Shown: positions 51,161 to 60,195 of the stretch, piece after piece | Numbering within the stretch: position 1 is the stretch's first letter | Layout: the number at the start of each line of letters is the position of its first letter | DNA from: Solirubrobacterales bacterium 67-14 | GTDB taxonomy: Bacteria; Actinomycetota; Thermoleophilia; Solirubrobacterales; 70-9 | Reading direction: 5' to 3' | Assembly: GCA_001897355.1 (NCBI GenBank) | Contig: MKST01000003.1 | Span: 110,686-174,685, forward strand | Length of the DNA stretch: 64,000 bases | Notes under the pieces: generated by a model | What the model was told of the DNA's origin: nothing | The model's input: the letters and a program-made list of their open reading frames with translations, nothing else | Database searches by the model: none | Position numbers and translations under genes: made by a program

Positions 51161-52837
51161 TCAAGCTCCGGCCGGGTTCAGCCCTTCGGCCTTGAGCGTC
51201 TCGAACCAGTCGTCGACCTGGCGTTTCTTTTCGATGTCGCCCCAGCCAAGCCCGCGGGCCATCACGGTGGCCAGCGGTTCGACCGATTCGGCGGTCGCCA
51301 GGCTCGATGCGGCGGTCAGGCCGAGCCTGGTCCGCCGCAAGAGGACATCGGCCAGCGACCGGGCCTGCTCGAACTCGATCGCGATCTGGGCTTCGGCCAT
51401 CAGGTCCGGCATGCCTTCGACGATCGGCTTGGCCAGCTCGGGGTCGGCCTGGGCGAGCCGGATCACGCCGCGGGCCGCGTGGCCGTAGCGGAAGGTGAGC
51501 TGGGCCAGCGATTCCTTGCCCACTCCTTCCGGGGCGTCCAGTTCGGCCGGGTCGATCTCCATCCCGAGCGGGATCTCGGCGGTCTGGCAGCGGGCCTCAC
51601 GGCCGGCCCTTTCGACGATCCGGTCGACCGTCTGTTTCGCCATCCGTCGCCAGGTGGTGAGTTTGCCGCCGGTGATGGTCAGCATCCCCGACGAGGTCTC
51701 GTAGAGCTCGGCCTGGCGGGAGATGTCGACCGACTTGCGCGGGTCGCCGGTGCTGATCAGCGGCCGCACGCCGGCATAGGCCCCGACGATGTCGCTCTCG
51801 GTCAGCGAAAGGTCCATGAACTCGTTGGTCGCGTTGATCAGGTACTCGATGTCGTCCTCGGTCGCGGCGACTTCCTCGATCCCGCCGTCGTGATCGACGT
51901 CGGTCGTGCCGACCAGGGTGCGGCCGTACCAGGGCAAAGCGAAAATCCTTCGTCCCTCTCCGGCCGGGACGACGCAGGCGGCCTTGCCCATGTCGACGTC
52001 ATCGGTGGAGAAGAGCAGGTGGGCGCCGCGGCTCGGTGCGATCCTCGGGATGTCTTCCTCCCTCTCGATCTCGCCGGGGCGGATCTGATCGGCCCAGACG
52101 CCGGTCGCGTTGACGATGTTGTCGGCCTCGACCATCACGGTCTCGCCGGAGGCGGCCTCGGTGAACTCGACCTGCCGGGCCTTGCCGTTCTTCTCCAGCA
52201 CGCGGGTCACCTTCGCCCCGTTCAGGCAGACGGCGCCGAAGCGCTGGGCCTCGCCGAGCACGGTCAGCACCAGGCGGACGTCGTCGGTCTGGCAGTCATA
52301 GAAGAGATAGGCGGATTCCGGATCCCGCTTGTCCAGCGAGGGAATCAGCTCGACCACCTCGTCCCGGTCGATCGTCCGATGCCGGTCCGGTGACCACGAC
52401 TCCTCGGCTTCGGCCGGCCTCCGGCGCCAGCGGCGTTCACGCCGGTTGCGACCACCCGTGGCGCCGGCCAGTACGTCGTGGGCGTTCAAACCGAGGCCGA
52501 TCATCCGGTCCGGCTTTTCCTCGCCGAAGGTCGGGACCAGGAAGGGGGTCGGGTAGACCAGATGCGGCGCCAGCTCGACCATCAGCTGCCGTTCCAGCAG
52601 CGCTTCCCGGACCAGCCCGACGTCGAAGTTCTCGAGGTACCTGAGCCCGCCGTGGACCATCTTCGACGAGCGGGACGAGGTGCCGATCGCGTAGTCGCGA
52701 CCTTCCAGCAGGGCGACCGAGTAGCCGCGCGAGGCGGCATCCAGCGCCACCCCGGCTCCGGTGATCCCACCGCCGATCACCACGACCTCGAAATGGGCGC
52801 CGGCGATCGCTTCGAGCGACTCGCTGCGGCCTACCAA
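51161..52837 (-). CDS. glpD: FAD-dependent glycerol-3-phosphate dehydrogenase
   Basis: The 558-residue product oxidises glycerol-3-phosphate to dihydroxyacetone phosphate at the membrane. It has the FAD-binding VVVIGGGITGAG, the family motifs SSRSSKMVHGGLRYLE, the substrate loop PSRGAHLLF, TDVDHDGG and TGGKLTTWR, and the C-terminal alpha-helical domain of GlpD. Its start overlaps the end of the ECF S-component gene by seven bases, so it is in the same transcription unit. Confidence 0.95.
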   Translation of the reverse strand: MVGRSESLEAIAGAHFEVVVIGGGITGAGVALDAASRGYSVALLEGRDYAIGTSSRSSKMVHGGLRYLENFDVGLVREALLERQLMVELAPHLVYPTPFLVPTFGEEKPDRMIGLGLNAHDVLAGATGGRNRRERRWRRRPAEAEESWSPDRHRTIDRDEVVELIPSLDKRDPESAYLFYDCQTDDVRLVLTVLGEAQRFGAVCLNGAKVTRVLEKNGKARQVEFTEAASGETVMVEADNIVNATGVWADQIRPGEIEREEDIPRIAPSRGAHLLFSTDDVDMGKAACVVPAGEGRRIFALPWYGRTLVGTTDVDHDGGIEEVAATEDDIEYLINATNEFMDLSLTESDIVGAYAGVRPLISTGDPRKSVDISRQAELYETSSGMLTITGGKLTTWRRMAKQTVDRIVERAGREARCQTAEIPLGMEIDPAELDAPEGVGKESLAQLTFRYGHAARGVIRLAQADPELAKPIVEGMPDLMAEAQIAIEFEQARSLADVLLRRTRLGLTAASSLATAESVEPLATVMARGLGWGDIEKKRQVDDWFETLKAEGLNPAGA

Positions 52838-54834
52838 TTGAACCGCCGGGCGAGCAGGATGGTGCCGCCGCAGAGCCCGCCGGTGACGAAGAGCGCGATC
52901 AGGGTTGCGATCAGCGGCGACGGCTGCGGCCCGGCCTCGGAGGCAGCGAGCACCGCGTTGCTCGGGGCCACCGGCACCAGCGGGATCGAGGTGTCGGCCG
53001 GTGGTTCGGTCGTGGTCGGATCCACGGTCGGGTCGTCCCCGTTGTTGCCGGTACCGGAGTTGTTGCCGCTGTTGCGGTTCCCGTTGCCCGTGTTGCCGGG
53101 GTTGCCGGTGTTTCCGGTATTGGGCGAGGTGTCGGTCGGGGTCGCCAACGAACCCGGCGGGGGCGTGTAGGTCGGGGTCGAGGTGCCGTTGTTGCTCGAA
53201 GAGTTGTCGTTGTCCCCCGGGGTGACGCCGCCGTTGTTGTTGGAGTTATTGGCGTCGTCGTCCTTTTCCCGGGCCGGTGCGGCGATCGGCAGCGCCTTGC
53301 CGGCCAGGGCGGTGGTGCTGTCCGCGGTCACCCAGATCCTGGTCGCGTCGTTGTTCTTCGCGTAGAAGATGCTGCCGTCCGACTGCTGCAGCGAAAGCAG
53401 GTAGTCGGCCGGCGTGTTGCCGTTCTTCTTCAGGTAGTTGACGCCGCGACCCTGGGCGACCAGCCCCTGCATGACCAGCCCGGTCGATTGGGCATTCGCG
53501 GTACCGCTGTTGCCGAAACCACCGGAGCTTTTCTGTATGCCGTCGAGGAACCCGATCGCGCGGTTCGCCTGTTTCTTGCCGGTGATCGCCATCAGAGCCG
53601 CGCCGGTCGAATCGGAGTCGCTGGTCGCGCCCTTGGCGATGCCCCAGCCCCCGTTCTTGTTCTGGGCCTTGTAGAGCCACTTGAGCGAGTACTGGGCGTC
53701 CTTGCTCGCGGCCACGGAGCGGAAGGCGAGCACCGCGAAAGCGGTCACATTGACGTCGTTGCCGAAGGATCCGTTGCCGCGGCGGTTGCGCAGGGCCTCG
53801 ATCAGGTTCCTGCCTTTGAAGTCACGCGGATCCTGCCCGACCGTTTTCATCGCGAGGATGGTCAAGGCGATGTCGCTGGCCTTGGTTATGTACTGGCGGT
53901 TGTTGACCAGATAGCCGTAGGGCGTCGCGTTGATCTTCACGTCGAGCGGATTGATCCCGGTCGCGGCCAGGGCGAACATGACCCTGGCGGTGATGTTCAC
54001 CGACGAGCTGCCCCCGGGCATCGAGGCGAACCCGCCGTCCGAGTTCTGCTGGCCTCGGAGCCAGGTCGCCGCCGAGCTGGCCTGGCCGGTGTAAGCCGCC
54101 TCCGCCTTCTGAGTCGTCTCGCCGCCGAAGGTGAAGAGCAGCGCTCCGAGTACGAGCAACGTCACCCCGGTCGCGGTCCGGTTCCGACCGGCCGAACCAC
54201 CCTCCGGGGCGCCGACCGGGGTCACTTCGGCCTGACGCCACTGGAAGCGCTCGCGGAAGCGGACCAGGGCAGCGATCATCGCCGGCCCCGCGGCCAGGGC
54301 GAAGATGATGTTGCCAGTCATATGTGCGACGTCGAAGGGAATTGCTCTTACCTCAAGTGCAAGGTACCGGTCGAGGGACATTTCCCCCCCGAAGCTGACC
54401 ATCGTCTCAAGATTCATCCAGGCACCGAAGAGAACACCCGCGAGGCCGCAGAAGACCGCCAGCGTCCAGCGATCTATCCGGCCCCGGGTCAGATGCCAGA
54501 GCAGGCCACCCGCCACCCCGCACATCCCCCAGGCGACCATCTGCCATGGCGTCCACACACCCTGGCCGAGCCAGAAGTTGGAGACCAAGCCGCCCAGCGC
54601 CCCGACCGCGAACCCCGGGGCCGGGCCGAGCACGTAGCCGGCGATGATCACGATGTCGGTGGTCGCGACAACGTTCGGGATCGGCGCGAGCACGATCCGG
54701 CCCGCCACCGCCAGCGCGGCCAGCACCGCGACCAGAGCGACGATCTGCGAGGGCGGCCGAGACCGTTCGTACCAGAGCATCCCGGCCCCCAGGGCGAACA
54801 TCAGCACCACGACGCTGACCAGTTGCCAGCTCAC
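52831..54834 (-). CDS. ECF transporter S component fused to a transcobalamin-like alpha/alpha-barrel domain
   Basis: The 667-residue product begins with a six-span ECF S component (about 1-200; NVVATTDIVIIAGYVLGPAPG). A further membrane segment (about 218-236) precedes an extracytoplasmic domain of squalene-cyclase-like helical repeats (about 248-520), each marked by a QNSDGGF, RGNGSFG, NKNGGWG, SSGGFG or QSDGSI turn. An Asn/Ser/Thr/Pro-rich linker (about 530-625) and a C-terminal membrane segment (about 640-662) follow. The N-terminal half of human intrinsic factor/transcobalamin has the same alpha6/alpha6 barrel type. It follows ecfA in a cobalamin-riboswitch operon, so cobalamin is the likely substrate. 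Confidence 0.85.
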   Translation of the reverse strand: MSWQLVSVVVLMFALGAGMLWYERSRPPSQIVALVAVLAALAVAGRIVLAPIPNVVATTDIVIIAGYVLGPAPGFAVGALGGLVSNFWLGQGVWTPWQMVAWGMCGVAGGLLWHLTRGRIDRWTLAVFCGLAGVLFGAWMNLETMVSFGGEMSLDRYLALEVRAIPFDVAHMTGNIIFALAAGPAMIAALVRFRERFQWRQAEVTPVGAPEGGSAGRNRTATGVTLLVLGALLFTFGGETTQKAEAAYTGQASSAATWLRGQQNSDGGFASMPGGSSSVNITARVMFALAATGINPLDVKINATPYGYLVNNRQYITKASDIALTILAMKTVGQDPRDFKGRNLIEALRNRRGNGSFGNDVNVTAFAVLAFRSVAASKDAQYSLKWLYKAQNKNGGWGIAKGATSDSDSTGAALMAITGKKQANRAIGFLDGIQKSSGGFGNSGTANAQSTGLVMQGLVAQGRGVNYLKKNGNTPADYLLSLQQSDGSIFYAKNNDATRIWVTADSTTALAGKALPIAAPAREKDDDANNSNNNGGVTPGDNDNSSSNNGTSTPTYTPPPGSLATPTDTSPNTGNTGNPGNTGNGNRNSGNNSGTGNNGDDPTVDPTTTEPPADTSIPLVPVAPSNAVLAASEAGPQPSPLIATLIALFVTGGLCGGTILLARRFNW

Positions 54835-56540
54835 GGCCCGCTACCTTCCGTGGCGAGCAGTCCGATCCCCTGTCCGATCGAGACCAGGCCGGGCCGATCG
54901 AATACGCGCGCCACTTCGGAGGCGAAGTACCAGCCGCCGCTGAGCACGGTCGGCATGTCGGCATCGGCGACCACCTCACCGTCGCCCAGCAGGACCACCC
55001 GGTCGGCGAAGGCCACCGCGAACTCGACGTCGTGGGTGGAGATCACCACCGCCGCGCCACGGGCCGCCAGCCGGCCGGCCAGTTCGGTCAGGTGTTCCTT
55101 CAGGCCGCGGTCCATGCCGCGGGTCGGCTCGTCCAGGCAGACCAGTCCCGGCAGTTCGTCTCCCTCCATGCGACCGGCCAGGGCGATGGCCAGGGCCAGT
55201 CGCTGCCGCTCTCCACCGGAGAGATCGCGCGGATCGCGTTCCGGCGAAAGGTCCAGGCCTACCGCCCTTAGAGCGGCTTCGCCGGCTGGCCCGGAGAGCT
55301 CGTCCCCGATCCGTTCGCGGACCAGGAAGTCACCGGGGTTCTGGGTCAGCAGCGCGATCCCGGCCGGAACCTCGACGCTGCCCGAGACCGGTTCGACCAG
55401 CCCGGCCGCGGTCCGCAGCAAGGTCGACTTGCCGGCCCCGTTGCGGCCCATCAAGGCGACCTTCTCCCCCGCCCTGACCTCCAGGTCGATCCCCCGCAGC
55501 ACGTCGACCGGCCCGTCACCCGGGTCAAGCTCGACCCAGAGCCGCTTCGCCTTCAACACCGGCTCCCGCGCCGGCTCCACCCCACCCGCCTGGCCGCTCC
55601 GAAACGCCGTCGCCCTTCTGGGGGCGTTTGCCCACCGATTCGGCGGCTGATCGCCCCCAGTTGTGGAGGGTTTGGTCGATCGGGCGCGGTCGCGGAGGAT
55701 CTGGCGGGCGTCGCGGACTCCGACCGGCAACGGTTCGATGCCGGCGCCGGCGAAAACCAGGGCCGATGGCGTCGCCAGTTCCGGCTTCTCGGTCACCGCC
55801 CAGGCGAGGAAGTCGCGCGGGCTGCCGTCAAAGCCGATCCGGCCGGCATCCATCGCGATCACCCGGTCGGCGGCGGCGAGACAGCGTTCCAGCCGGTGCT
55901 CGGCCAGCACCACGGCCACCCCCCACTCCTCGTTCAGGCGCCTGAGCAGCCAGATCAGCTCGTCTCCGGAAACCGGGTCGAGCTGGGAGGTCGGTTCGTC
56001 CAGCAGGATGAGCGGCGGCCGGGTGACCAAGGCGACGGCCAGTGCGACCCGCTGCAACTCTCCACCCGAGAGGGTGGTCACGGTGCGGGGCAGCAAGTGG
56101 GGAATGCCCAACGCGAGCGCCACCTCTTCGACCGCCCGGGCCCGCTCGGCCGGATGGTCGCCGCGAAAGCGGAGCGGCAAGTCGAGCTCGGCCGCGACCG
56201 TGGTCGAAACGATCTGAGTCTCCGGATCCTGGGCGACGTAGCCGACCACGTCGGCCAACTCGCCCGGCCCGCTTTCGGTGGTCGGGCGGCCGGCGACCCG
56301 CGCCGTGCCGGAAATCTCGCCACCGTGGAAATGCGGGATCAGGCCACAACCGGCCCGCAACAGCGAGGTCTTGCCGGAGCCGGAGCCACCGGCGAGGACC
56401 ACGAACTCACCCGGCTCGATCGCCAGCGAAACTCCCTGAAGGGCCGCCGCTTCTGCCCCGGCATAGCGATAGCCGAGGTTCTCGAACTCGAGCGCGAGCC
56501 CGGCCCCACGGGTCGCCTCCCGGCTGGCCACCGGGTTCAC
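54831..56540 (-). CDS. ecfA: ECF transporter ATPase, two fused NBDs
   Basis: The 569-residue product has two ABC ATPase domains in one chain: domain 1 with GGSGSGKTS, LSGGELQR and LLDEPTSQLDP, domain 2 (from about 330) with GRNGAGKST, LSGGERQR and CLDEPTRGMD. This replaces the EcfA1/EcfA2 pair. It overlaps the EcfT gene upstream and the S-component gene downstream by four bases, so the transporter subunits are translationally coupled. Confidence 0.93.
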   Translation of the reverse strand: MNPVASREATRGAGLALEFENLGYRYAGAEAAALQGVSLAIEPGEFVVLAGGSGSGKTSLLRAGCGLIPHFHGGEISGTARVAGRPTTESGPGELADVVGYVAQDPETQIVSTTVAAELDLPLRFRGDHPAERARAVEEVALALGIPHLLPRTVTTLSGGELQRVALAVALVTRPPLILLDEPTSQLDPVSGDELIWLLRRLNEEWGVAVVLAEHRLERCLAAADRVIAMDAGRIGFDGSPRDFLAWAVTEKPELATPSALVFAGAGIEPLPVGVRDARQILRDRARSTKPSTTGGDQPPNRWANAPRRATAFRSGQAGGVEPAREPVLKAKRLWVELDPGDGPVDVLRGIDLEVRAGEKVALMGRNGAGKSTLLRTAAGLVEPVSGSVEVPAGIALLTQNPGDFLVRERIGDELSGPAGEAALRAVGLDLSPERDPRDLSGGERQRLALAIALAGRMEGDELPGLVCLDEPTRGMDRGLKEHLTELAGRLAARGAAVVISTHDVEFAVAFADRVVLLGDGEVVADADMPTVLSGGWYFASEVARVFDRPGLVSIGQGIGLLATEGSGP

Positions 56541-57427
56541 GGTCGTCCCTTCCGGTTGCCGGGACGCCAGGTGACGAAACCTCCGATCAGAAACGCGATA
56601 GCGGCCACGGGGCCTTCAAGGCCGAACTCCCAGCTGATCTCCGGGTAGGCCTCGAAGCGTCCCGAGCCGAAGGCCAGTTCGGCCAGGGCGACCACCATCA
56701 AGAGGGAGCCGGCAAGCAAGAAACGGCGGTCATAGCGGGACGGGACCGGCCGGAAGCGGGCCGTGCTACCGGAGCTGCCGTAGCCGCGAAGCTCGAGCGT
56801 CGCCGCCACGTCCACCGCCCGGTCGAGGGAGCCGGCCAGCAGCCGATGGGCCATCGCGCCCCGGCCGACCGGGCTGGCGGCAGGCCCTCGCAGGGTGGCC
56901 GCCTCGCCGATCCGGGCGTAGTCGGTGGCGGCCAAAGGCACCAGGCGGGAAATAAGGGTCGCGGTCAGGGCGGAGCGCCGAGCCACGCCGTGCACCGCTT
57001 GCAAGATCCGGTCAGGGTCGACACAGGCGGACCAGACGCCGATCACGACCATAGTCCCCATCGCCCGCAGGCCGATCACGGCGCCGGCGGCGATCGCCTC
57101 GGCGGTCACGTCGACCCGGCCCAGGAGCGGCCAGTCGCCGAGCCGGGCCAGCACGGTGGCGCCACGGCCGGTGACCAGTGCGTTGACGACCACCATGGTC
57201 AGGGCCAGGAAGCCGCCTAGTTTCAGCGAGAAATTTACGGCCCGCTTCGCTCCCGATCCGTACCCGGCGATCACCACCCCGACGGTCGCCGCAATCAGTA
57301 CCAGCGGATCGGAGGAGAAAAAGCAGACCAAGAGATACGCCCCCAGGTAGAGCGCAACCGGCGCCAGCGAGGCGGTCTGGACCGTTTCCCGCCGGGGCAC
57401 GTAGGCGATTGGCGAAAGCTTCTTCAT
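56537..57427 (-). CDS. ecfT: ECF transporter transmembrane subunit EcfT
   Basis: The 296-residue product has five to six membrane segments and the Ala-Arg-Gly-type coupling helices of EcfT: DRILQAVHGVARRS and RAVDVAATLELRGYG (the canonical second motif is ARG). It transmits ATP hydrolysis to the S component. It sits between the DUF4430 lipoprotein gene and ecfA. Confidence 0.9.
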   Translation of the reverse strand: MKKLSPIAYVPRRETVQTASLAPVALYLGAYLLVCFFSSDPLVLIAATVGVVIAGYGSGAKRAVNFSLKLGGFLALTMVVVNALVTGRGATVLARLGDWPLLGRVDVTAEAIAAGAVIGLRAMGTMVVIGVWSACVDPDRILQAVHGVARRSALTATLISRLVPLAATDYARIGEAATLRGPAASPVGRGAMAHRLLAGSLDRAVDVAATLELRGYGSSGSTARFRPVPSRYDRRFLLAGSLLMVVALAELAFGSGRFEAYPEISWEFGLEGPVAAIAFLIGGFVTWRPGNRKGRP

Positions 57428-57436
57428 GCCGGCCGT

Positions 57437-58420
57437 TCAGGGTACGGGCAGCGAGGAAACCCGGCCGTCGCTGACCACCGCTGCGTATCTCCGTTCAAGG
57501 TCTTCCGGGTTGAGCGCCGCCGCGGCCATCTGCACGGCATGGTCGGTGCCACCGGTGATCAGCCAAACCGGCGGATCTTCGTTCCGGCGCATCGCCGCGA
57601 CCAGGCCGGCGTCGGCCCCGTAACTCTCGCCCTCGCTGCCGTCGACCTTGATCCCTTTGATCTGCAGGGTGGGATAGGGACGACCGTTCTTCCGCAGGAC
57701 TGGCCCGACGCCGAATGTCGCGAAGACGCCGCTCGCCGCGGGCCCGCGATGGAGGCGCTTGAGTTCCGGGGTGGGCAGCAGGTCGGGAAGGGTGCCCACG
57801 ATCACTCGCATGTTCTTCCCGGTGTCTTCCAGGTTGACGCCATCGCCCTCGAGCTGTTTGGTGACCATCCGGCAAGCGGTCTTTTCGCCCATGCAGTCGA
57901 CCTCGACTCCCCAGTCGTGGTTGTCGTAGCCGGTCGAGAACGGGGCCGGATAGGCGCCGACCACGGCGCCTACCTCCATCGCATCGGTCCAGTCGCGGTA
58001 GTCCCACCAGACGATGTCGCCGCCGGTGGTCGGGAACTGGGCCGATCCACGTTCGGCGACGATCCCGTTGACGGAGAAGAACCAGTCGAAGCGACGGCCG
58101 CCCTTGCTCGTCCCGGCGAGGCCGTCGACCGACTGGACGAACTCACCGCCGTAGGCGGTTTCGAGGTCCGACTCCTCGTCGAGCATCCGCATCGCGTTGC
58201 TCGACTCGTTGACCGGCAAGTCCGGTTTGTCGACCAGAACCTCGGAGCCGTAGTCACGGGTCACCCAGAGGGTGGCGTCACCGGTGTCTTTGCCGGGCCC
58301 CAGCCCGCATCCGGTGGCCGTGAGGCCGGCCAGCGCGAGCCCGGCCAGCAGTGCAGCCGCCGTGCCGACGGCCCGGGCAGATGAGCCCTTGGACCGTCGG
58401 CTGGTGGCTGCTTGATTCAT
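57437..58420 (-). CDS. DUF4430 (transcobalamin C-domain-like) lipoprotein
   Basis: The 327-residue product has a signal peptide with lipobox LTATGC, then a beta domain with GDATLWVTRDYG, AMRMLDEESDLETAYGG, FVQSVDGLAG, WFFSVNGIVAERGSA and GDIVWWDYRDW. This matches the DUF4430 pattern found at the C terminus of transcobalamin and intrinsic factor. A second domain of about 190 residues follows. It should bind a substrate on the outer face of the membrane. Third from the riboswitch in the operon leader order, before ecfT. Confidence 0.82.
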   Translation of the reverse strand: MNQAATSRRSKGSSARAVGTAAALLAGLALAGLTATGCGLGPGKDTGDATLWVTRDYGSEVLVDKPDLPVNESSNAMRMLDEESDLETAYGGEFVQSVDGLAGTSKGGRRFDWFFSVNGIVAERGSAQFPTTGGDIVWWDYRDWTDAMEVGAVVGAYPAPFSTGYDNHDWGVEVDCMGEKTACRMVTKQLEGDGVNLEDTGKNMRVIVGTLPDLLPTPELKRLHRGPAASGVFATFGVGPVLRKNGRPYPTLQIKGIKVDGSEGESYGADAGLVAAMRRNEDPPVWLITGGTDHAVQMAAAALNPEDLERRYAAVVSDGRVSSLPVP

Positions 58421-58430
58421 CCGGTCCCGA

Positions 58431-59183
58431 CTACTTCCGGTGTTTCTTGTTCTTCTTGATCGAGACGTACACCCGGTTGGACGGAACGAGTCCGGACTGG
58501 CGAGCGACCAGTTTCGTCTTGCCGGTGATCTTCACCATGGCGTAGCCCTGGGCGTTGGTGTTCACGGCGCTGGCGCCGCCACTCACCTTGGCTTCACTCA
58601 CCGGGCTGCGCTTTCCTGCCGAGTCGTACTCGAACACCCGAACCTTGACCTTGGCGCCCTTGCGAACCTTGGCCGGAGCCTTCAGGAAGAGCAGATCCGG
58701 GTTCGGCTGCTGCCAGGTTTCCGAGAGGAAGTAGAGGACCGAGTCCCCCTTCTTCAACTTTGTCGTTTCCGCGCCGGTGGAAGTCGCCTTGTAGTTCTGG
58801 TAAAGCGACCACCACTGCTCGCCCTCAGCCATGGTCCCGCCGATGCCGCAGACGCCGAAGCCGAAATCGCTGTCGGAGACCTTGAGCGGCCGCAGCGCCT
58901 TGTACTTGAGCGATGCCTGGTAGAGCAGGCCGAGTGCGGTTGCTCCGGTGACCGTTCGGGCCGGTCCGGTACGTCCGCCCAGAGTCGGGCAGTCCGAGGT
59001 CGGTTTGATCGTCGCCGTACCGGTCTTGACCGTGCTGTCGAAGATGATCTTGCCTTGGTACGTGACCACCCGCAGGTTGACCGGGATCTTGTTCGCGGCG
59101 GCAGCCGGCTGAGCGGCGAGGCCGAGCAGCATTGCCAGCCCGAGCAGCAGCCCGAGGGCGGGTGGGGTGAATCGTTTGGTCAT
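58431..59183 (-). CDS. Secreted DUF4430-like protein, first gene of the ECF operon
   Basis: The 250-residue product has a signal peptide (about 1-31, ending AAAAN) and a domain with VNLRVVTYQGKIIFDSTV, ATALGLLYQAS, WWSLYQNYKA and KKGDSVLYFLSETW, the DUF4430 fold plan with a different loop region. A C-terminal Ig-like or carboxypeptidase-regulatory-like segment (about 168-240) ends in a very basic tail. It directly follows the cobalamin riboswitch, so its synthesis should respond to cobalamin. Confidence 0.78.
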   Translation of the reverse strand: MTKRFTPPALGLLLGLAMLLGLAAQPAAAANKIPVNLRVVTYQGKIIFDSTVKTGTATIKPTSDCPTLGGRTGPARTVTGATALGLLYQASLKYKALRPLKVSDSDFGFGVCGIGGTMAEGEQWWSLYQNYKATSTGAETTKLKKGDSVLYFLSETWQQPNPDLLFLKAPAKVRKGAKVKVRVFEYDSAGKRSPVSEAKVSGGASAVNTNAQGYAMVKITGKTKLVARQSGLVPSNRVYVSIKKNKKHRK

Positions 59184-59246
59184 GCGTTCCTTTTGTCCGG
59201 CGGCCCTACGCGAGGCCGCTTTTTCGGTGCGCCAGATGGCGCAAAG

Positions 59247-59405
59247 CCGGCAGGTCTTCGGACTCGGACGTTTTCGAGGAGGCAGCCTTCCCAGACCGTG
59301 GTCCAGTGGCCATGTGCCTTCAAGGACGTCCCTACCGCTGCGCGTCAGTTCCGGATTTCGACCGGATTCCCTGACCCCGCTGAGGGGTGCGACCGACTTC
59401 GCAGC
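59247..59405 (-). promoter_or_regulatory. Cobalamin riboswitch
   Basis: On the minus strand the order of conserved blocks is that of the AdoCbl aptamer: AGGGAATCCGGTCGAAATCCGG, then ACTGACGCGCAGCGGTAGGGAC, a GCCACTGGACCACGGTCTGGGAAGG-type helix region (read as separate short blocks) and the terminal GAGTCCGAAGACCTGCC. It lies 64 bases before the start of the DUF4430-like gene. Two hairpins follow (59228-59243, and 59200-59205 with 59214-59219), likely the expression platform. Ends are approximate. Confidence 0.88.
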
Positions 59406-59466
59406 GGATGATAAAGCGTCCTGTTCCGCCGTGACCTGTCAAGATTCCGGATTCCCTTCCTCACCT

Positions 59467-60195
59467 ATGGACTTCTTCGCCGCCGCCCTAAACAACCTGC
59501 CGCTCGCCTTTGGGCCGAGCTGGCTCGACCCGCAGACCCTGATCGAGAAGTTCTCGATGATCGGGCTCCTGATCGTGGTCTTCATGGAGTCCGGCCTGAT
59601 GGTCGGCTTTTTCCTGCCCGGCGATTCGCTGCTGTTCACGGCCGGCCTGCTCTCGGCGACCACCGACGTGCTGCCGGATCTGTGGGTGCTCCTGATCCTG
59701 ATCCCGATCGCCGCGATCGCCGGTGACCAGACCGGTTACTGGATAGGACGCAAGTTCGGGCCGCCCCTTTTCAACCGTCCCGACAGCCGCTTCTTCAAAC
59801 GCGAGTACGTCGACCAGACGGCTGCCTTTTTCGAGAAGCACGGACCCCGGGCGATCATCCTGGCCCGTTTCGTGCCGATCGTGCGGGCCTTCGTGCCGGT
59901 GATGGCCGGCACCTCGAGGATGCATTACCGGACCTTCCTCACTTTCGACATCATCGGCGGCATCCTCTGGGGCGCCGGGGTGACCACCCTGGGCTACTTC
60001 CTCGGCCAGATCGACTTCATCAAGAACAACATCGAGTTCATCCTGATCGCGGTGGTTGCCTTCTCCGTGATCCCGGTCGTACTGGAGATCCGCAAGGCCA
60101 AGCGCGAAGCCGATTCCCATCAGAAGCCGGTTCCGTTCGAGAACCCGATCGACGAAGAGGGCGAACCGGTCCATCCCGTCGAGTCCGAGGTCTGA
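59467..60195 (+). CDS. DedA-family membrane protein
   Basis: The 242-residue product starts at the ATG at 59467; the frame upstream runs through the riboswitch region and is not coding. It has about five membrane segments and the DedA motifs VVFMESGLMVGFFLPGDSLL, GDQTGYWIGRKFG, FFEKHGPRAIILARFVPIVR and GGILWGAG, the set linked to lipid-carrier or phospholipid flipping. The C-terminal tail is acidic. Confidence 0.92.
   Translation: MDFFAAALNNLPLAFGPSWLDPQTLIEKFSMIGLLIVVFMESGLMVGFFLPGDSLLFTAGLLSATTDVLPDLWVLLILIPIAAIAGDQTGYWIGRKFGPPLFNRPDSRFFKREYVDQTAAFFEKHGPRAIILARFVPIVRAFVPVMAGTSRMHYRTFLTFDIIGGILWGAGVTTLGYFLGQIDFIKNNIEFILIAVVAFSVIPVVLEIRKAKREADSHQKPVPFENPIDEEGEPVHPVESEV

What the first reader, a model, noticed from the sequence alone, without database searches (positions are those of the whole stretch)
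52831..59405. Cobalamin-riboswitch ECF operon with bacterial transcobalamin-like domains
Seen in sequence: a cobalamin aptamer, then two exported DUF4430-type proteins, EcfT, a fused double ATPase, and an S component fused to an extracytoplasmic helical-repeat domain on a long flexible linker. Known: human intrinsic factor and transcobalamin are an alpha6/alpha6 barrel plus a DUF4430-type beta domain that clamp B12 between them. Here the same two domain types are encoded separately in one B12-regulated transport operon, one tethered to the transporter itself. Inference: the exported beta domains and the tethered barrel close around B12 at the cell surface and pass it to the fused S component.
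Basis: partly seen in the sequence, partly recalled or inferred. Interest (0 to 1): 0.92.

Follow-up and report, generated by a model that had tools for sequence, protein, structure and literature searches.

The report
B12 importer with transcobalamin-like capture domains
An actinobacterium carries a vitamin-B12-controlled gene set for a B12 importer whose outward-facing parts resemble the two halves of the human B12 carriers intrinsic factor and transcobalamin; a 2007 paper predicted such bacterial B12 catchers, and here one half is built into the importer itself.

Summary
A strong cobalamin riboswitch (97.9 bits) heads five tightly packed genes: two exported DUF4430 proteins (the second a likely lipoprotein), EcfT, a double ATPase, and an S component fused to an alpha/alpha toroid. 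One correction: the long linker follows the toroid and leads to a C-terminal membrane helix. B12 is the likely substrate: the S component's best solved relative is the B12-specific CbrT (8e-27, next 0.0017); the genome has B12 enzymes and no CbiC match. Much of the layout, riboswitch included, recurs in other Actinomycetota. In Bacillota, toroid and DUF4430 often share one chain, in the order of intrinsic factor, behind the same riboswitch. Profile comparison links DUF4430 to the transcobalamin beta domain (94%) and the toroid to its toroid (89%; cyclases 0.2-0.5%). Against: the toroid is closest by sequence to squalene-hopene cyclases; the transcobalamin match falls to 5% with window-type rows alone; the window's own DUF4430 proteins are not found by an animal profile; no structure could be predicted. 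Burroughs et al. 2007 predicted B12 scavenging by such proteins, so the core idea is known. Not seen in what I read: the CbrT link, the riboswitch and the toroid fused to the transporter. The B12 clamp is inference.

The parts
59232..59412 (-). Cobalamin riboswitch aptamer (RF00174), full length; its 3' end lies 48 bases before the first start codon
   Evidence: cmscan 97.9 bits, gathering 31.5, model 1-189/189; leader sequence with AAAGGAA just before the ATG
58431..59183 (-). D1: exported DUF4430-type (transcobalamin beta-domain type) protein, 250 aa, N-terminal signal-like helix 5-23
   Evidence: PF14478 20.9 bits, below cut-off 23.8; own family profile; hydropathy
57437..58420 (-). D2: exported DUF4430 protein, 327 aa, likely lipoprotein (Gly37-Cys38 in at least 90% of 40 aligned rows), with a C-terminal part of unknown kind
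   Evidence: PF14478 32.3 bits, cut-off 23.8; conservation; hydropathy; reading of the Cys as a lipobox is general knowledge
56537..57427 (-). EcfT (CbiQ-type) transmembrane coupling protein, 296 aa
   Evidence: PF02361 38.9 bits, cut-off 25
54831..56540 (-). EcfA-EcfA' double ATPase in one chain, 569 aa
   Evidence: two ABC_tran stretches; TIGR04520/TIGR04521 at 233-234 bits, below their equivalog cut-offs of 315 and 330
52831..54834 (-). CbrT-type S component (about residues 1-200), hydrophobic helix 220-238, extracytoplasmic alpha/alpha toroid (about 250-520), low-complexity linker (about 525-635), C-terminal hydrophobic helix 641-659
   Evidence: Pfam; S-component profile to 6FNP_A 8.1e-27; hydropathy and sequence

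Best explanation
This is a B12-repressible ECF-type cobalamin importer with its own extracytoplasmic capture module. When cellular B12 is low the riboswitch lets the operon be expressed. EcfT, the double ATPase and the CbrT-type S component move cobalamin across the membrane. Outside, a toroid held at the membrane between two helices of the S-component chain, a lipoprotein (D2) and a secreted protein (D1) carrying transcobalamin-type beta-grasp domains catch cobalamin and deliver it to the S component; most likely a beta domain closes over the corrin ring seated at the mouth of the toroid, as in intrinsic factor and transcobalamin. Shown here: the riboswitch, the gene order and its recurrence, the CbrT relationship, the DUF4430-to-transcobalamin relationship by family profile, one-chain versions in other bacteria. 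Inferred from these and from general knowledge: repression by B12, cobalamin as substrate. Inferred and untested: binding by the outer domains, their closing on each other, hand-over to the S component.
For: Riboswitch 97.9 bits; upstream in 37 of 59 relatives' loci against 0.14 expected, and directly upstream of the operon in 15 of 22 named loci scanned, Bacillota included. S-component profile: CbrT of the B12 transporter ECF-CbrT 8.1e-27, next S component 0.0017; ECF-CbrT imports B12 (PMC5997447, passages). In 198 phylum genomes all 35 with DUF4430 are among the 60 with an S/toroid match, Fisher p 5e-23, relatedness of genomes not corrected for. Toroid and DUF4430 in one chain in 13 of 80 named loci, DUF4430 after the toroid in each. 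DUF4430 profile (31 rows) to transcobalamin beta domain 94.5% probability, reversed control 0.3%. An animal beta-domain profile run on 10,287 ORFs: the top 11 hits (E 9e-5 to 0.38) are 10 proteins mapped as DUF4430 plus the unmapped first gene of one more such operon. Toroid profile (46 rows) to transcobalamin toroid 89.3%; six squalene-hopene cyclases 0.2-0.5%. Own genome: MetH and two methylmalonyl-CoA mutase chains present, no CbiC match, and the one FecCD permease over cut-off lies near an HtaA haem-protein gene.
Against: The toroid is closest by sequence to squalene-hopene cyclase (7e-51). Its link to transcobalamin needs the mixed profile: the 33 window-type rows alone give 4.8%, nine Bacillota-type rows alone 31.7% over only 24 columns, 6-row samples 4.7-78.3%, and the one-chain toroids (A5) 3.3%. 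PF01122 for the window toroid is 15.9 bits, cut-off 25. The animal beta-domain profile does not find the window's D1 or D2, and the animal toroid profile reaches the window fusion only at E 11. The full D2 profile found no transcobalamin in the PDB and matched the animal beta profile at 63%; the DUF4430 profile's transcobalamin hits in the PDB are weak (best 0.03, with an unrelated SUI1 protein at 0.057). The one-chain toroids score below Pfam's toroid cut-offs in the three examples scanned and rest on my iterated profile plus a PDB match to cyclases (1.4e-23). 15 of 37 loci outside the family have no toroid nearby and 14 no DUF4430 nearby by my profiles. CbrT binds B12 unaided (Kd about 9 nM), so a capture module is not needed in principle. 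No structure, no binding data.
Confidence: 0.65

Rival explanations
1. The operon imports B12, but the outer domains do not form a clamp: each binds B12 on its own, or they serve as anchors, spacers or wall scaffolds for the transporter.
For: In the window they are on three separate chains. Of 37 loci outside the family, 15 have no detectable toroid and 14 no detectable DUF4430 gene nearby. Bacillota versions carry S-layer and Ig-type domains.
Against: The same two domain types are joined in one chain in the transcobalamin order in 13 of 80 named loci, and animal carriers use this pair to sandwich B12 (Burroughs et al. 2007, passages).
Confidence: 0.22
2. The toroid is a secreted enzyme of the terpene-cyclase type (single-domain cyclases such as MstE are known, recalled) or a binder of another hydrophobic ligand.
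For: Best solved relatives are squalene-hopene cyclases (7e-51; one-chain toroids 1.4e-23), and 14 of 46 aligned toroids keep DxDD.
Against: The window has DSDST, and 32 of the 46 rows (window included) lack full DxDD, while the third-position Asp (42) and the Thr (46) are kept. The domain sits outside the membrane in a B12-regulated transport operon. The stretch N-x-x-S-T-x4-Q-x-L (N 40, S 43, T 37, Q 38, L 40 of 46) resembles transcobalamin NVYSTPLALQFL, where six cyclases read STASQT[AG]WAL (compared by eye). No hopene-cyclase match in the window's genome.
Confidence: 0.08
3. The transporter carries another ligand: cobinamide or other corrinoid precursors, or cobalt, rather than complete cobalamin.
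For: EcfT belongs to the CbiQ 'cobalt transport' family by name; CbrT also binds cobinamide; no CbiC match, so salvage of precursors is conceivable.
Against: Cobalt S components are CbiM-type (recalled), this one is CbrT-type; cobinamide would be a side substrate rather than an alternative to B12.
Confidence: 0.05

Closest known systems
ECF-CbrT, B12-specific ECF transporter of Lactobacillus delbrueckii (PDB 6FNP; PMC5997447, passages read)
   Same: S component of the same family (8.1e-27 over positions 18-191 of 192); EcfT plus two ATPase domains.
   Different: There CbrT is predicted to share one ECF module with seven other S components, and the solved chain is 182 aa without an outer domain; here the operon has its own EcfT and ATPases, the two ATPases are one chain, and the S component carries a toroid plus a C-terminal helix, next to two DUF4430 proteins.
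Bacterial transcobalamin-like SLBB proteins (Burroughs et al. 2007, PMC1796856; abstract, passages, sections 7 and 10 read)
   Same: Secreted transcobalamin-type beta-grasp domains, toroids, often a second SLBB protein in the operon, CbiO/CbiQ genes, predicted B12 scavenging.
   Different: The words riboswitch, S-component, CbiM and lipoprotein do not occur in its main text; the toroid examples in the parts I read are fused to the SLBB domain, not to the transporter's S component.
Animal intrinsic factor, transcobalamin, haptocorrin
   Same: A toroid and a beta-grasp domain; family-profile matches of 89% and 94%.
   Different: One soluble chain there; three membrane-held or secreted chains here; PF01122 below cut-off here.
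SCO2321 family membrane protein (NF053823)
   Same: Best NCBIfam match of the fusion protein, 99 bits.
   Different: Far below its cut-off of 300 bits; the one held paper with the word SCO2321 is about a protein-delivery peptide by its listing.

Membership tests
Cobalamin riboswitch (RF00174) | Covariance-model score over the curated threshold, full-length aptamer | tested here: met
   97.9 bits, threshold 31.5, positions 1-189 of 189
ECF-CbrT transporter | CbrT-family S component | tested here: met
   Profile A1 (32 rows) to 6FNP_A 8.1e-27; next hit 0.0017
ECF-CbrT transporter | EcfT plus two ATPase domains | tested here: met
   CbiQ 38.9 bits; two ABC_tran stretches
ECF-CbrT transporter | ATP-dependent cobalamin uptake | not testable with these tools
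   needs a transport assay
Transcobalamin-like SLBB / DUF4430 (PF14478) | Pfam score over cut-off, D2 | tested here: met
   32.3 bits, cut-off 23.8
Transcobalamin-like SLBB / DUF4430 (PF14478) | Pfam score over cut-off, D1 | tested here: not met
   20.9 bits, cut-off 23.8; in several relatives, e.g. G207, G213, G223, the D1 gene does pass
Animal cobalamin carriers (intrinsic factor, transcobalamin, haptocorrin) | PF01122 toroid over cut-off | tested here: not met
   15.9 bits, E 0.0065, cut-off 25; 8 of 46 aligned toroids match at E <= 1, best 1.1e-4
Animal cobalamin carriers (intrinsic factor, transcobalamin, haptocorrin) | Toroid and beta domain in one chain | tested here: not met
   Separate genes in the window; joined in 13 of 80 named loci
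Animal cobalamin carriers (intrinsic factor, transcobalamin, haptocorrin) | Found by a profile of the animal proteins | tested here: not met
   Window D1 and D2 not found, window fusion protein E 11; some relatives' D1 proteins down to 9e-5
Animal cobalamin carriers (intrinsic factor, transcobalamin, haptocorrin) | B12 bound between the two domains | not testable with these tools
Squalene-hopene cyclase / class II terpene cyclase | Sequence similarity to solved cyclases | tested here: met
   7e-51 to 1gsz_A with the 46-row profile
Squalene-hopene cyclase / class II terpene cyclase | DxDD general-acid motif (role recalled) | tested here: not met
   DSDST in the window; DxDD in 14 of 46 rows
Squalene-hopene cyclase / class II terpene cyclase | TIGR01507 score over cut-off | tested here: not met
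   22.2 bits, cut-off 431.1

The most novel reading that the evidence does not exclude
An ECF transporter with a built-in two-part vitamin trap: the S component carries a tethered transcobalamin-type toroid, a lipoprotein lid with the beta-grasp domain closes it over B12, and the closed pair delivers to the same polypeptide's S component. It would be an ECF system with a dedicated extracytoplasmic capture step, and a living relative, split into parts, of the ancestor of human intrinsic factor.
Probability: 0.4. Interest if true: 0.82.

Novelty: new variant of a known kind. Interest (0 to 1): 0.6.

Why it matters
ECF importers are described as capturing their substrate with a membrane protein (passage in PMC2667541). 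A dedicated outer capture module would change that picture for B12 and could explain how such bacteria gather it at very low concentration. The split, transporter-tethered form makes the 2007 prediction directly testable, because each outer domain can be deleted without touching the transporter, and it bears on where the human B12 carriers came from.

Tried and rejected
Structure prediction of the toroid (A2) and of D2 (A3), and fold comparison with transcobalamin: not possible (see below); replaced by profile-profile comparison, which is weaker.

Toroid as a plain squalene cyclase: considered seriously, because one search points there; kept only as a rival for lack of full DxDD, location and context. 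One-chain Bacillota toroids as a closer match to transcobalamin: not borne out (A5 to transcobalamin 3.3%). Whole D2 profile against the PDB: no relevant match (one hit, BamD at 0.58). Animal profiles against the window's own proteins: D1 and D2 not found, fusion protein at E 11. Cobalt transport: rejected on the S component. BtuCDF as an alternative importer in the same genome: the one FecCD match over cut-off sits near an HtaA gene, so haem is likelier; BtuF itself was not searched. A promoter scan of 52500-59800 found none (0; mean 0.5 in shuffles). Published contact residues of transcobalamin: two structure papers are not held; one held paper names Cbl-binding His173 (passage), which sits just before the Val-Asp-Thr stretch aligned to the DSDST motif.
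Full report
OBSERVATION. On the minus strand of 52831-59412 lie, in order of transcription, a full-length cobalamin riboswitch (97.9 bits, threshold 31.5), an exported protein D1, an exported protein D2, EcfT, a double ATPase and a large S-component fusion. Gaps between successive genes are 10, 9, -4 and -4 bases, so they are very likely co-transcribed. The leader has AAAGGAA just before the ATG of D1. Pfam finds DUF4430 above cut-off in D2 (32.3 bits) and below it in D1 (20.9; cut-off 23.8), CbiQ in EcfT, two ABC domains, and toroid plus ECF S-component domains in the fusion. D2 has Gly37-Cys38 kept in at least 90% of 40 aligned rows, as expected for a lipoprotein (general knowledge).

SUBSTRATE. 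A profile of 32 S components (A1) finds, among all PDB sequences, CbrT of the B12 transporter ECF-CbrT at 8.1e-27, and the next S component at 0.0017. ECF-CbrT was shown to bind and import cobalamin and cobinamide (PMC5997447, passages). The window's genome (95% complete) has four B12-binding-domain matches; the genes there include MetH, two methylmalonyl-CoA mutase chains and a small B12-binding protein. It has no match to CbiC, so it probably does not make B12 from scratch; one missing gene in an incomplete genome is not proof. Its one FecCD permease over cut-off lies near an HtaA haem-protein gene; BtuF was not searched. A second, sub-threshold riboswitch match (30.6 bits) precedes class I ribonucleotide reductase genes, a familiar B12-riboswitch target from general knowledge.

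CONSERVATION. Of 50 genomes of the same family, 44 have a match to the fusion protein, and in 38 one match spans both S and toroid parts by my count of the rows. I fetched 59 relatives' stretches (without L082, which is the window's own genome). In the 22 from the same family, all have the S-toroid fusion, 21 a DUF4430 gene and 20 an upstream over-threshold riboswitch; the misses are L104 and L114, whose genomes have a riboswitch on another contig. In the 37 others, 22 have a toroid nearby (one, L065, fused to S; one, L092, without an S gene), 23 a DUF4430 gene nearby, 17 an over-threshold riboswitch and 7 one below threshold. By chance 0.14 loci would have such a riboswitch; 37 do. The loci were picked for matching the S or toroid, so only DUF4430 and the riboswitch are independent counts. 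In a draw of 198 genomes of the phylum, 60 match the S-toroid protein and 35 have DUF4430, and all 35 are among the 60 (p 5e-23, not corrected for relatedness).

ONE-CHAIN RELATIVES. Of the 80 loci, 66 have a toroid nearby, 65 a DUF4430 gene, 49 the S-toroid fusion and 13 a protein with toroid and DUF4430 in one chain; several loci are cut short by contig ends. In these 13 a DUF4430 follows the toroid, the order of intrinsic factor and transcobalamin; one L191 protein has DUF4430 on both sides. Two unnamed Actinomycetota proteins (L079, L087) show the opposite order, beta domains first, by eye and by weak Pfam matches. In Moorella thermoacetica (L185), Desulfotomaculum copahuensis (L202) and Anaerovirgula (L188) the one-chain protein carries S-layer anchors and DUF4430 at 44-57 bits, while its toroid stays below Pfam's cut-offs and is seen by my iterated profile and by a PDB profile match to cyclases (1.4e-23). 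A cobalamin riboswitch lies directly upstream of the operon in 15 of 22 named loci scanned; L183, L192, L200, L145, L186 and L191 have none in the stretch held, and L198, cut at its upstream end, only one downstream.

RELATION TO TRANSCOBALAMIN. Beta domain: a profile of 31 DUF4430 domains (A4) finds in the PDB first 3u7z (0.0017), then transcobalamin-2 (0.03), an unrelated SUI1 protein (0.057) and further transcobalamins (0.42-0.47), all weak. Profile against profile it matches the animal beta domain at 94.5% probability over 92 columns, the reversed profile at 0.3%, and the full D2 profile at 63.3%. The one invariant column, a Trp in 31 of 31 rows, aligns with Trp377 of transcobalamin. In the other direction, an animal beta-domain profile searched against 10,287 ORFs has as its top 11 hits ten proteins already mapped as DUF4430 and the unmapped first gene of one more such operon (L096, 1.2e-4); three of the 11 are below 0.01, and the window's own D1 and D2 are not found. 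Toroid: the profile of 46 toroids (A2) is closest to squalene-hopene cyclase (7e-51), with no transcobalamin in the best 60 of 114. Profile against profile it matches the animal toroid at 89.3% over 217 columns, nearly end to end; six squalene-hopene cyclases give 0.2% (C-terminal part), 0.5% (N-terminal part) and 0.3% (whole), the reversed profile 0.1%. This is not robust: six-row samples gave 4.7, 47.6, 55.5, 78.3 and 56.4%, the 33 window-type rows alone 4.8%, nine Bacillota-type rows alone 31.7% over 24 columns, and the one-chain toroids 3.3%. An animal toroid profile searched against the same ORFs gave 18 hits at E <= 10, 13 of them toroid proteins, the best at 0.033; the window's fusion protein is at 11. 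The aligned parts include DSDSTGAAL with SVDTAAMAG, next to the Cbl-binding His173 (named in PMC4947154, passage), and NAQSTGLVMQGL with NVYSTPLALQFL. The toroid therefore looks like a member of the terpene-cyclase/prenyltransferase superfamily lying between cyclases and transcobalamins, with full DxDD in 14 of 46 rows.

PRIOR WORK. Burroughs, Balaji, Iyer and Aravind 2007 (PMC1796856; abstract, passages, sections 7 and 10 read) described bacterial transcobalamin-like SLBB domains fused to toroids, often with a second SLBB protein and CbiO/CbiQ genes, in bacteria that usually lack key B12 synthesis enzymes; they predicted B12 scavenging and a transfer of the pair to animals. Their main text has no occurrence of riboswitch, S-component, CbiM or lipoprotein. 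A 2014 paper also names DUF4430 as the C-terminal domain of transcobalamins (PMC4350170, passage). In the listings of my ten paper searches I saw no experimental test of such a system and no report of an S component fused to a toroid; the library lacks most subscription journals, including the 2009 paper that predicted CbrT, which I could not check, so this is a limited statement. A 2024 survey of S-component folds has no mention of squalene, prenyltransferase or cobalamin in its main text (word search).

MECHANISM. Most likely: low B12 switches the operon on; outer domains catch cobalamin; the S component takes it over; ATP drives import. The toroid and the lipoprotein D2 are both expected at the membrane, D1 free or wall-associated, so a lid-and-bowl clamp beside the transporter is easy to picture. 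That step is inference. CbrT already binds cobalamin at about 9 nM without help, so the capture module may matter only at very low B12 or for passing the wall.

VERDICT. What I did not find in print is the transporter-tethered, split form, its riboswitch, and the CbrT link. Interest 0.6.

Noticed in passing
L066:4573-7254, L069:2776-5661, L074:2948-5494: In these three Actinomycetota loci the gene between riboswitch and D2 codes for an 848-961 aa (open frame) PQQ/BamB-type beta-propeller protein (PF13360 76-99 bits) and no D1 was mapped. From memory, the Bacteroides surface B12 binder BtuG is also a beta-propeller; whether they are related was not tested.
   Followed up: partly
L078:3-5174, L085:836-5449, L086:9907-15411: Giant proteins (1537 and 1834 aa; L078 is cut by the locus end) with two or three DUF4430 domains, first in the same ECF operon; L085 and L086 also have an Ig-type domain over cut-off and a propeller match below cut-off.
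   Followed up: partly
L096:6053-8139: An operon with a 519 aa toroid + FWGYW-type beta-like region in one chain and a 173 aa protein that Pfam does not recognise but an animal transcobalamin beta profile finds at 1.2e-4.
   Followed up: partly
G000:C1:66513-66629 (L082 6514-6630): Sub-threshold cobalamin riboswitch (30.6 bits, threshold 31.5) before class I ribonucleotide reductase NrdB/NrdA genes.
   Followed up: yes
window 51161-52837: A glycerol-3-phosphate dehydrogenase-type gene (DAO, DAO_C) overlaps the end of the fusion gene by 7 bases on the same strand; co-transcription was not examined.
   Followed up: no
window 24001-48000: G+C falls to 0.56-0.60 between flanks of 0.64-0.71, a possible foreign island close to this operon.
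   Followed up: no
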